From assembly GCF_040958095.1 (NCBI RefSeq), contig NC_091173.1, forward strand, positions 12,225,000 through 12,288,999: a stretch of 64,000 nucleotides of DNA. The letters are read 5' to 3'. Position numbers and translations under genes: made by a program. This DNA comes from Procambarus clarkii (taxonomy: Eukaryota > Arthropoda > Malacostraca > Decapoda > Cambaridae). The notes below the pieces were generated by a model. The model did not search any database, was not told the DNA's origin, and worked only from the letters and a program-made list of their open reading frames with translations. This document shows positions 55,501 to 61,103 of the stretch, one piece after another; positions within the stretch are counted from its first letter, which is position 1; every line of letters begins with the position of its first letter.

Positions 55501-58500
55501 GTTATCTAATTGATGTTCATTAGTTTCTATTTTGCATTATTATTATTATTATTCAGTATAACAAGTAGGATTTACATGCAACATTTGATAATCATCATGA
55601 TGTATTGGTTTGTTTACATGTCTGAAATGTTGATAGATCCTCCAGTCTGAAGATGTGGCTTAAGTCATATAATGACTTATTAGCCATATTAGAAGTACTG
55701 TACAGTACCTTGCTTGTACGACTTTAAAAACAGATTGTGTAATATACAAAATAATGGATTTTTTTGTTTTAAGCTGTGTATTTTTAATTAATAATTCTAT
55801 TTGTTTAGCTGGAACATTTAAGATTGCAGTATACAGTATGTATATATATATATATATATATATATATGTATATATATATATATATATATATAACCCATAT
55901 ATATATATATATATATATATATATATATATATATATATATATATATATATATATGTCGTACCTAGTAGCCAGAACGCACTTCTCAGCCTACTATGCAAGG
56001 CCCAATTTGCCTAATAAGCCAAGTTTTCATGAATTAATGTTTTTTCGACGACCTAACCTACCTAACCTAACCTAACCTACCTTTTTCGGTTACCTAACCC
56101 AACCTAACCTATAAAGATAGGTTAGATTAGGTTAGGTAGGGTTGGTTAGGTTCGGTCATATATCTACGTTAATTTTAACTACAATAAAACAAAATTGACC
56201 TCATTCATAATGAAATGGGTAGCTTTATCATTTCATAAGAAAAAAATTAGAGAAAATATGTTAATTCAGGAAAACTTGGCTTATTAGGCAAATCGGGCCT
56301 TGCATAGTAGGCTGAGAAGTGCGTTCTGGCTTTTAGGTACGACATATATATATATATATATATATATATATATATATATATATATATATATATATATATA
56401 TATATATATATATATATATATATATATATATATATATATATATATATATATAACTGAAAACTCACACCCCAGAAGTGACTCGAACCCATACTCCCAGATG
56501 CCACGCAACTGGTATGTACAAGACGCCTTAATCCACTTGACCATCACGACCGGACATAATGAGGTGATAGCCGAGGCTATTTGAACCACCCCACCGCCGG
56601 CACTCGGATAGTAATCTTGGGCATAGCATTTTACCAAATCACCTCATTCTTTGGGGCACACGTGAGGAACACAAATGCGAACAAGCCTGAATGGTCCCCA
56701 GGACAATATGCAACTGAAAACTCACACCCCAGAAGTGACTCGAACCCATACTCCCAGATGCCACGCAACTGGTATGTACAAGACGCCTTAATCCACTTGA
56801 CCATCACGACCGGACATAATGAGGTGATAGCCGAGGCTATTTGAACCACCCTACCGCCGGCACTCGGATAGTAATCTTGGGCATAGCATTTTACCAAATC
56901 ACCTCATTCTTTGGGGCACACGTGAGGAACACAAATGCGAACAAGCCTGAATGGTCCCCAGGACAATATGCAACTGAAAACTCACACCCCAGAAGTGACT
57001 CGAACCCATACTCCCAGATGCCACGCAACTGGTATGTACAAGACGCCTTAATCCACTTGACCATCACGACCGGACATAATGAGGTGATAGCCGAGGCTAT
57101 TTGAACCACCCCACCGCCGGCACTCGGATAGTAATCTTGGGCATAGCATTTTACCAAATCACCTCATTCTTTGGGGCACACGTGAGGAACACAAATGCGA
57201 ACAAGCCTGAATGGTCCCCAGGACAATATGCAACTGAAAACTCACACCCCAGAAGTGACTCGAACCCATACTCCCAGATGCCACGCAACTGGTATGTACA
57301 AGACGCCTTAATCCACTTGACCATCACGACCGGACATAATGAGGTGATAGCCGAGGCTATTTGAACCACCCTACCGCCGGCACTCGGATAGTAATCTTGG
57401 GCATAGCATTTTACCAAATCACCTCATTCTTTGGGGCACACGTGAGGAACACAAATGCGAACAAGCCTGAATGGTCCCCAGGACAATATGCAACTGAAAA
57501 CTCACACCCCAGAAGTGACTCGAACCCATACTCCCAGATGCCACGCAACTGGTATGTACAAGACGCCTTAATCCACTTGACCATCACGACCGGACATAAT
57601 GAGGTGATAGCCGAGGCTATTTGAACCACCCCACCGCCGGCACTCGGATAGTAATCTTGGGCATAGCATTTTACCAAATCACCTCATTCTTTGGGGCACA
57701 CGTGAGGAACACAAATGCGAACAAGCCTGAATGGTCCCCAGGACAATATGCAACTGAAAACTCACACCCCAGAAGTGACTCGAACCCATACTCCCAGATG
57801 CCACGCAACTGGTATGTACAAGACGCCTTAATCCACTTGACCATCACGACCGGACATAATGAGGTGATAGCCGAGGCTATTTGAACCACCCCACCGCCGG
57901 CACTCGGATAGTAATCTTGGGCATAGCATTTTACCAAATCACCTCATTCTTTGGGGCACACGTGAGGAACACAAATGCGAACAAGCCTGAATGGTCCCCA
58001 GGACAATATGCAACTGAAAACTCACACCCCAGAAGTGACTCGAACCCATACTCCCAGATGCCACGCAACTGGTATGTACAAGACGCCTTAATCCACTTGA
58101 CCATCACGACCGGACATAATGAGGTGATAGCCGAGGCTATTTGAACCACCCCACCGCCGGCACTCGGATAGTAATCTTGGGCATAGCATTTTACCAAATC
58201 ACCTCATTCTTTGGGGCACACGTGAGGAACACAAATGCGAACAAGCCTGAATGGTCCCCAGGACAATATGCAACTGAAAAATGCTATGCCCAAGATTACT
58301 ATCCGAGTGCCGGCGGTGGGGTGGTTCAAATAGCCTCGGCTATCACCTCATTATGTCCGGTCGTGATGGTCAAGTGGATTAAGGCGTCTTGTACATACCA
58401 GTTGCGTGGCATCTGGGAGTATGGGTTCGAGTCACTTCTGGGGTGTGAGTTTTCAGTTGCATATTGTCCTGGGGACCATTCAGGCTTGTTCGCATTTGTG

Positions 58501-61103: not shown

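What the first reader, a model, noticed from the sequence alone, without database searches (positions are those of the whole stretch)
56452..58755. 260-bp homogeneous array that flips orientation and ends beside a splice acceptor
Seven near-identical 260-bp units are followed by two inverted units. The junction at 58272-58281 shares an AAAA microhomology between AACTGAAAA and GGTAAAATGC. Both outer ends merge into (TA)n, and exon 2 of ADK begins about 150 bp beyond. The inverted copies can pair with any direct copy, so a transcript crossing the array could form very large hairpins just upstream of the acceptor. Near-perfect identity implies recent expansion or conversion. An assembly artefact is the main alternative.
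Basis: partly seen in the sequence, partly recalled or inferred. Interest (0 to 1): 0.75.

Follow-up and report, generated by a model that had tools for sequence, protein, structure and literature searches.

The report
Two-sided rolling-circle retrocopy in TA repeats
The flipped tandem array in this gene's intron belongs to a very large family of mobile repeats, and its structure suggests that both sides of a break in a TA-repeat copied the same small circular molecule round and round before being joined.

Summary
The array is real: 7.03 copies of a 260-bp unit, then 1.84 inverted copies, inside (TA)n, 151 bp before an adenosine-kinase-like exon. It is not a one-off. A 66-nt piece of the unit matches 83,305 places in this 4.03-Gb genome. 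The loci read follow strict rules. At 76 of 77 TA-flanked ends the tRNA-like strand points outward, at unit position ~100 or ~137. Neighbouring opposed ends on part of one contig pair 100 with 137 in 34 of 37 cases (33 of 36 after dropping a false pair). Each array usually consists of one unit sequence, the same in both arms, and loci differ. Central joins show microhomology or short inserts. The window's join recurs once, with the ends swapped, so it arose independently. A sister empty site is plain (TA)n. Best explanation: both 3' ends of a broken (TA)n prime copying of one single-stranded 260-nt circle, probably RNA, and the products are end-joined. This resembles animal retrozymes plus LINE twin priming, but no hammerhead was found. 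RNA, circularity and enzyme are inferred; splicing was not tested.

The parts
56344..56451 (.). left (TA)n tract, remnant of the target
   Evidence: TRF (listed as 56344-56452); sequence
56452..58280 (-). left arm, 7.03 units; tRNA-like strand reads right to left, its 3' end (unit position 100) faces the left (TA)n
58278..58280 (.). inversion join, 3-nt microhomology (AAA); left arm stops at unit position 92, right arm starts at 180
58278..58755 (+). right arm, 1.84 units; tRNA-like strand reads left to right, its 3' end (unit position 137) faces the right (TA)n
58756..58891 (.). right (TA)n tract, remnant of the target
   Evidence: TRF (listed as 58754-58891)
58904..58906 (+). CAG splice acceptor after a T-rich tract
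   Evidence: sequence
58907..59079 (+). adenosine-kinase-like exon, followed by GTAAGT
   Evidence: PDB sequence match

Best explanation
The array is one insertion of a non-autonomous retroelement-like repeat into a (TA)n tract. A break or paired nicks in (TA)n leave two 3' ends. Each anneals to the same strand of a 260-nt single-stranded circle, most likely a circular RNA with tRNA-like promoter boxes, one end near unit position 136 and the other near 100. A reverse transcriptase supplied in trans copies round the circle from each end (0.16 to 12.9 units in the opposed arms measured), giving two tandem arms of one monomer that face each other. Repair then joins the two free ends by short microhomology or small inserts, some of them templated, so the join varies between loci. 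Shown in the loci read: outward polarity, two end positions, 100/137 pairing, usually one monomer sequence per array in both arms, varied joins, insertion inside (TA)n. Inferred: that the template is RNA, that it is circular, that one circle serves both ends, and the enzyme (a Penelope-like or LINE reverse transcriptase).
For: Polarity: 76 of 77 TA-flanked ends in the fetched loci are 3'-outward, 33 of 33 in the loci not chosen by their ends. Genome-wide exact patterns: 137 end 13,040, 100 end 10,618, opposite polarity at the 137 breakpoint 9. Pairing on C1 0-35.3 Mb by position: 34 mixed, 3 of 137/137, 0 of 100/100; 33 of 36 without one false pair, 28 of 31 if ends lie within 3 kb (p 2e-6 or lower against one half, not all pairs independent). 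Monomer bottleneck: variants against the window unit are usually in all copies of both arms, e.g. six sites at 12/12 or 13/13 in L052, two at 14/14 in L034, two at 18/18 in L040, one at 10/10 in L075. Main-family arms of one locus are identical in 18 of 29 pairs against 83 of 1,735 between loci. Joins: of 30 measured, 17 direct with mean overlap 2.5 nt (1.8 without the compound locus L068) against 0.64 expected; 13 with inserts. The window's join recurs once, with ends swapped and a variant fixed there that the window lacks. Target: empty sister site L077 against filled L032 and L054. (TA)n pairing over 8 bases ranks position 136 second and 100 fifth of 520 registers.
Against: No Rfam match of any kind in the unit at E<=10, hammerhead core pattern absent and no unusually stable circular fold (z -1.6 and -0.9), so how a circle would form is unknown. 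No expression data. The priming-site ranking fades with longer pairing. Inversion is reported as frequent for L1 but rare for Alu and SVA (section heading seen), so twin priming of a SINE-like RNA would be unusual. L031 has different monomers in its two arms, so one shared circle is not obligatory or that locus is compound; L037, L049.1 and L068 are also mixed, and L047.0 and L071 have partial variants. A few variants sit in two copies only, including the window's own 2 of 9. Three of 37 end pairs are homotypic; one of them (L078) has one monomer type in both arms. One TA-flanked end has the opposite polarity (L070) and 13 3' ends are not beside (TA)n. Several loci are single-armed (7 of 23 clusters in the first set).
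Confidence: 0.55

Rival explanations
1. A 260-bp DNA circle (double- or single-stranded extrachromosomal DNA) is captured at (TA)n breaks and copied by a DNA polymerase from both ends.
For: Accounts for the monomer bottleneck, the microhomology joins and the inserts.
Against: A double-stranded circle offers both strands, yet polarity is 76 of 77 in the sample and 13,040 against 9 at one breakpoint genome-wide. Only a single-stranded circle of one polarity survives.
Confidence: 0.2
2. Twin priming on a linear multimeric transcript of an existing homogeneous array; no circle is needed.
For: Explains polarity, opposed arms and microhomology joins as in LINE 5' inversions (passages of PMC2912911).
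Against: No monomer bottleneck, so singletons of the parent should appear as partial variants; few do. Same-type ends should be common on a multimer, but the count by position is 34:3:0.
Confidence: 0.15
3. A two-ended transposon-like or foldback element that moves as a whole, with the centre of the palindrome revised afterwards.
For: Two fixed and different ends, inverted arms.
Against: Joins vary between loci. The shared joins I recognised are L049a/b and L047a/L048, which also share a flank on at least one side, and the neighbours L063/L078. The window join occurs twice, with ends swapped. The two ends are not equal inverted repeats. Joins were not compared genome-wide.
Confidence: 0.08
4. 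Ordinary satellite DNA that is homogenised locally by unequal exchange and conversion.
For: Tandem, homogeneous, abundant.
Against: Short arrays with fixed ends in (TA)n, identity across inverted arms, few half-spread variants in the loci read.
Confidence: 0.04
5. Assembly artefact at the inversion.
For: Reads could not be examined.
Against: 31 of 37 close adjacencies between arms in the fetched sample have the same opposed polarity; joins vary and carry repair-like inserts; an empty sister site exists.
Confidence: 0.02

Closest known systems
Animal non-LTR retrozymes (Cervera and de la Pena 2020, PMC7229834; abstract, passages and Discussion read)
   Same: Non-coding tandem units of 150-450 bp; the authors propose that a primed circular RNA is copied into tandem cDNA by enzymes of LINEs or Penelope-like elements.
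   Different: No hammerhead found here; tRNA-like boxes; insertion into (TA)n; two opposed arms with two fixed ends. The terms inverted, microsatellite and target site were not found in that paper's main text.
LINE-1 twin priming / 5' inversion (PMC2912911, passages seen)
   Same: Both target ends prime on the same RNA, giving inverted halves joined with microhomology.
   Different: Here both arms are tandem copies of a 260-bp monomer and both ends are at fixed positions.
tRNA-derived SINEs and SINE-derived satellites (PMC10702118, abstract seen)
   Same: Likely Pol III boxes (GGTTCGAGTC at unit position 66; TGGTCAAGTGG by eye); SINE-type sequence in tandem; 268-bp single inserts exist (L039, L041, L046, L059).
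   Different: No Rfam tRNA match; arrays in TA tracts and two-sided.
DRT2 concatemeric cDNA (PMC12039810, abstract seen)
   Same: A reverse transcriptase makes tandem repeats from a non-coding RNA.
   Different: Bacterial defence system, template is part of a pseudoknotted RNA, product is not a (TA)n insertion.

Membership tests
Animal non-LTR retrozyme | tandem units of about 150-450 bp, from dimers upward | tested here: met
   260-bp unit; opposed arms 0.16-12.9 units, median 2.45 (64 arms)
Animal non-LTR retrozyme | type I hammerhead ribozyme in the unit | tested here: not met
   No Rfam family at E<=10 on two units; core pattern absent on both strands
Animal non-LTR retrozyme | low G+C (<50%) | tested here: inconclusive
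   Unit is exactly 50% G+C
Animal non-LTR retrozyme | circular RNA in tissues | not testable with these tools
   No RNA data
tRNA-derived SINE | Pol III A and B boxes from a tRNA | tested here: inconclusive
   B box at unit position 66, A-like box by eye at 9 (my A-box patterns did not match it); likeness to tRNA-Leu is recalled; no Rfam tRNA hit
tRNA-derived SINE | dispersed single copies as the rule | tested here: inconclusive
   Single 268-bp inserts exist (L039, L041, L046, L059), many fetched loci are multi-unit arrays, but the loci were picked from lists that favour arrays
LINE twin priming | opposed halves with microhomology at the join | tested here: met
   Mean overlap 2.5 nt in 17 direct joins against 0.64 expected
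LINE twin priming | one end is the RNA 3' terminus | tested here: inconclusive
   137 may be a terminus or an internal priming site; no RNA data
Foldback or TIR DNA transposon | matching inverted termini copied with the whole element | tested here: not met
   Ends differ (100 and 137) and joins vary between loci
Classical satellite DNA | long arrays at few chromosomal sites | tested here: inconclusive
   Short arrays scattered along the listed part of C1; long arrays elsewhere were not searched for

The most novel reading that the evidence does not exclude
An animal genome has been seeded with thousands of arrays by two-sided, target-primed rolling-circle reverse transcription of a tRNA-like circular RNA that carries no known self-cleaving ribozyme. 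Each insertion passes through a single RNA monomer, and the near-obligatory pairing of two different ends reflects two primers sharing one small circle.
Probability: 0.42. Interest if true: 0.88.

Novelty: new variant of a known kind. Interest (0 to 1): 0.72.

Why it matters
That circular RNAs are templates for mobile tandem repeats has been proposed for retrozymes, where priming and integration were a hypothesis (PMC7229834 Discussion). These arrays look like a dense genomic record of that step: fixed priming positions, a one-monomer bottleneck, two opposed arms and end-joining scars, with more than twenty thousand exact array-end matches in one genome. That makes the order of events and the choice of enzyme testable, and gives a route by which short satellite arrays can be scattered into introns.

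Tried and rejected
Genome DNA search with the unit found nothing, presumably because the tool skips very common words; the pattern search replaced it. Rfam scan of 55800-59000 gave 16 matches, all below the families' cut-offs, in (TA)n or the neighbouring palindrome or running over the array's edge; two units alone gave nothing at E<=10. Linear folds of the unit were not unusual (z -0.55 and -0.07). Self-priming by cDNA fold-back was considered and dropped: it would give 137/137 ends, which are 3 of 37. L1-style stopping of the first strand at the second priming site was considered: junction positions of the 137 arm look scattered, not clustered near 101 (judged by eye). GIY-YIG domains were sought as a hint of Penelope-like elements: 30 matches over the cut-off among 150 scored of 4,843 candidates, which shows neither Penelope elements nor their role. 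The third homotypic pair (C1:35.179 Mb) was not read. Relatives of this genome are not held, so presence in other species is untested. Paper searches for a published description: (listings only; open PubMed Central text); no listed title or abstract start shows this architecture, but many papers are not held. Also opened: PMC10454600 (passages) and PMC5139131 (abstract and outline), on decapod repeats and mollusc satellite junctions. One search was for the species: a passage of PMC12842422 gives 4.03 Gb for Procambarus clarkii, which fits; the species is inferred.

Full report
What is in the window. The array occupies 56452-58755: 7.03 direct units of 260 bp, then 478 bp of inverted units, with (TA)n on both sides. 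Units are identical except for one shared change in units 2 and 4 and one change in the inverted arm. The overlap at the join is AAA. The array ends 151 bp before an exon whose translation best matches adenosine kinases among solved structures (E about 0.002; nothing at E<=0.001).

It is one of very many. With up to three mismatches, a 66-nt piece of the unit occurs 41,116 + 42,189 times in the 4.03-Gb genome, with no hits for the reversed control. I number the unit along its tRNA-like strand, with GGTCGTGATGG as position 1; this is the reverse complement of the window's direct copies. I read 19 regions from the first 12.4 Mb of contig C1, chosen from the listed exact unit hits (L031-L049), 24 chosen at a 137 end (L050-L073; two of these, L058 and L065, showed no arm of 40 bp or more), and single loci L075-L078. 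Nearly all of this is from one contig.

Architecture. In the first set plus the window, 16 of 23 clusters of 100 bp or more are opposed arms and 7 are single arms. Over both sets, 31 of 37 close adjacencies are minus-then-plus in tRNA-like sense, two are the opposite and four keep the strand. Of 77 array ends beside (TA)n, 76 have the 3' end of the tRNA-like strand outward, at positions 97-106 or 136-137; the exception is a 43-bp piece in L070; 13 further 3' ends are not beside (TA)n. In the set not chosen by ends all 33 are outward. Genome-wide, exact end patterns give 13,040 hits for 137 and 10,618 for 100. The opposite polarity at the 137 breakpoint gives 9; other breakpoints of that polarity were not searched.

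Pairing of ends. From the coordinate lists on C1 0-35.3 Mb (168 ends), neighbouring opposed ends within 12 kb are 34 of 100/137, 3 of 137/137 and 0 of 100/100. One of the 34 (4.003/4.013 Mb) is not a single array: L054 shows that the first array ends earlier, in a variant 100-type end. Without it the count is 33 of 36, and 28 of 31 if ends must lie within 3 kb (p between 6e-8 and 2e-6 against one half). Some pairs are local duplicates, so these p values are too small. Eighty-three ends (53 and 30) had no neighbour in the lists, through single arms or inexact partner ends. Of the three homotypic pairs, L068 has arms of two sub-families. L078 has the same monomer type and the same pair of junction positions as its heterotypic neighbour L063, about 5.6 kb away, so it probably derives from it. 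The third was not read.

One monomer per array. Variants against the window unit are, as a rule, present in every copy of both arms or in one copy only. Examples: six sites at 12/12 or 13/13 in L052, five at 9/9 or 10/10 in L053, two at 14/14 in L034, two at 18/18 in L040, one at 10/10 in L075. Several of these variants are shared by many loci; it is the combination that differs. For arms of 100 bp or more sharing at least 80 positions, arms of one locus have identical consensus in 21 of 34 pairs overall and 18 of 29 in the main family; between loci this is 103 of 2,588 and 83 of 1,735. Exceptions are L031 (each arm uniform but different), L037 (a uniform stretch followed by a diverged one), L049.1, L068, L047.0, L071 and a few variants in two copies, including the window's 2 of 9.

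Joins. Thirty joins with a gap of 40 bp or less were measured; two loci repeat a join (L049 twice, L047/L048). Seventeen are direct, with mean overlap 2.5 nt (1.8 without the 14-nt palindrome of the compound locus L068), against 0.64 for random positions; 13 carry inserts of 3-31 nt. For the inserts of L045, L049, L054 and L064 the best match to the flank is seldom reached by shuffles (fraction 0.016 or less); the others tested are not significant one by one. The window's join string occurs exactly at two places in the genome. At the other (L075) the arm that ends at 100 stops at 180 and the arm that ends at 137 starts at 92, the reverse of the window, and all ten copies carry a variant absent from the window. 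So the join was most likely made twice independently. Joins that I recognised as shared by two loci are L049a/b and L047a/L048, where a flank on at least one side also matches, and the near neighbours L063/L078.

Target. Outer flanks recur between different arrays. One host is a tandem unit of about 4.1 kb; its left-flank string occurs 551 times with up to two mismatches. L077 is a copy with uninterrupted (TA)n followed by (GT)n, and L032 and L054 are copies with different arrays within that same tract and both flanks intact. In this host the target was therefore pre-existing (TA)n; I infer the same for the window.

Mechanism. Fixed polarity argues for a single-stranded template. One monomer per array argues for a bottleneck of one circle. 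Opposed arms from both sides of one (TA)n with variable repair-like joins argue for synthesis from both broken ends followed by end joining. The pairing of two different ends is what would follow if both primers sit on one small circle with two sites, each usable once; L031 shows this is not the only possibility. Complementarity of (TA)n to the unit is second-best at 136 and fifth-best at 100 among 520 registers for 8 bases, but not for longer stretches. A circular RNA fits best because of the tRNA-like boxes and strand bias; RNA, circle and enzyme remain inferred.

Known relatives. Retrozyme authors proposed that primed circular RNAs give tandem cDNA copies, with Penelope-like elements as candidates (PMC7229834, Discussion read). 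The unit here lacks a recognisable hammerhead, so it works like, but is not shown to be, a retrozyme. LINE twin priming gives inverted halves with microhomology; the same paper's heading says that 5' inversion is rare for Alu and SVA (PMC2912911, passages). I found no report of this combination in the listings, which cover only open PubMed Central papers.

Splicing. The 478-bp perfectly complementary arms could pair in a transcript. Nothing here tests whether they do or whether splicing changes.

Noticed in passing
window 55955-56343: A separate palindromic element with GTCGTACCTAGTAGCC-type ends and (TA)n on both sides; such ends also border the (TA)n of a number of other 260-bp arrays.
   Followed up: partly
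window 1737-2208: A 193-bp tandem unit (2.4 copies, 97% matches); a related motif lies at the edge of an array piece in L062.
   Followed up: no
L050 466-535, L053 3028-3097, L062 1841-1910: A 70-bp piece about 84% like unit positions 64-133 beside (TA)n, with a different continuation: possibly an older related SINE.
   Followed up: partly
L051, L054, L056, L060, L069, L071 and the right arm of L031: A sub-family about 10% diverged with the same end positions within a few bases; where its 100-type end was seen (L051, L054, L056, L060, L071) it varies in sequence.
   Followed up: partly
L077; C1 around 0.9-1.2, 3.7-4.05 and 26.4-26.6 Mb: A tandem cluster on C1 (unit about 4.1 kb at 3.8-4.05 Mb) whose (TA)n tract has been hit more than once; content not identified.
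   Followed up: no
window 27294-27364: A tRNA-Thr gene predicted on the minus strand.
   Followed up: no
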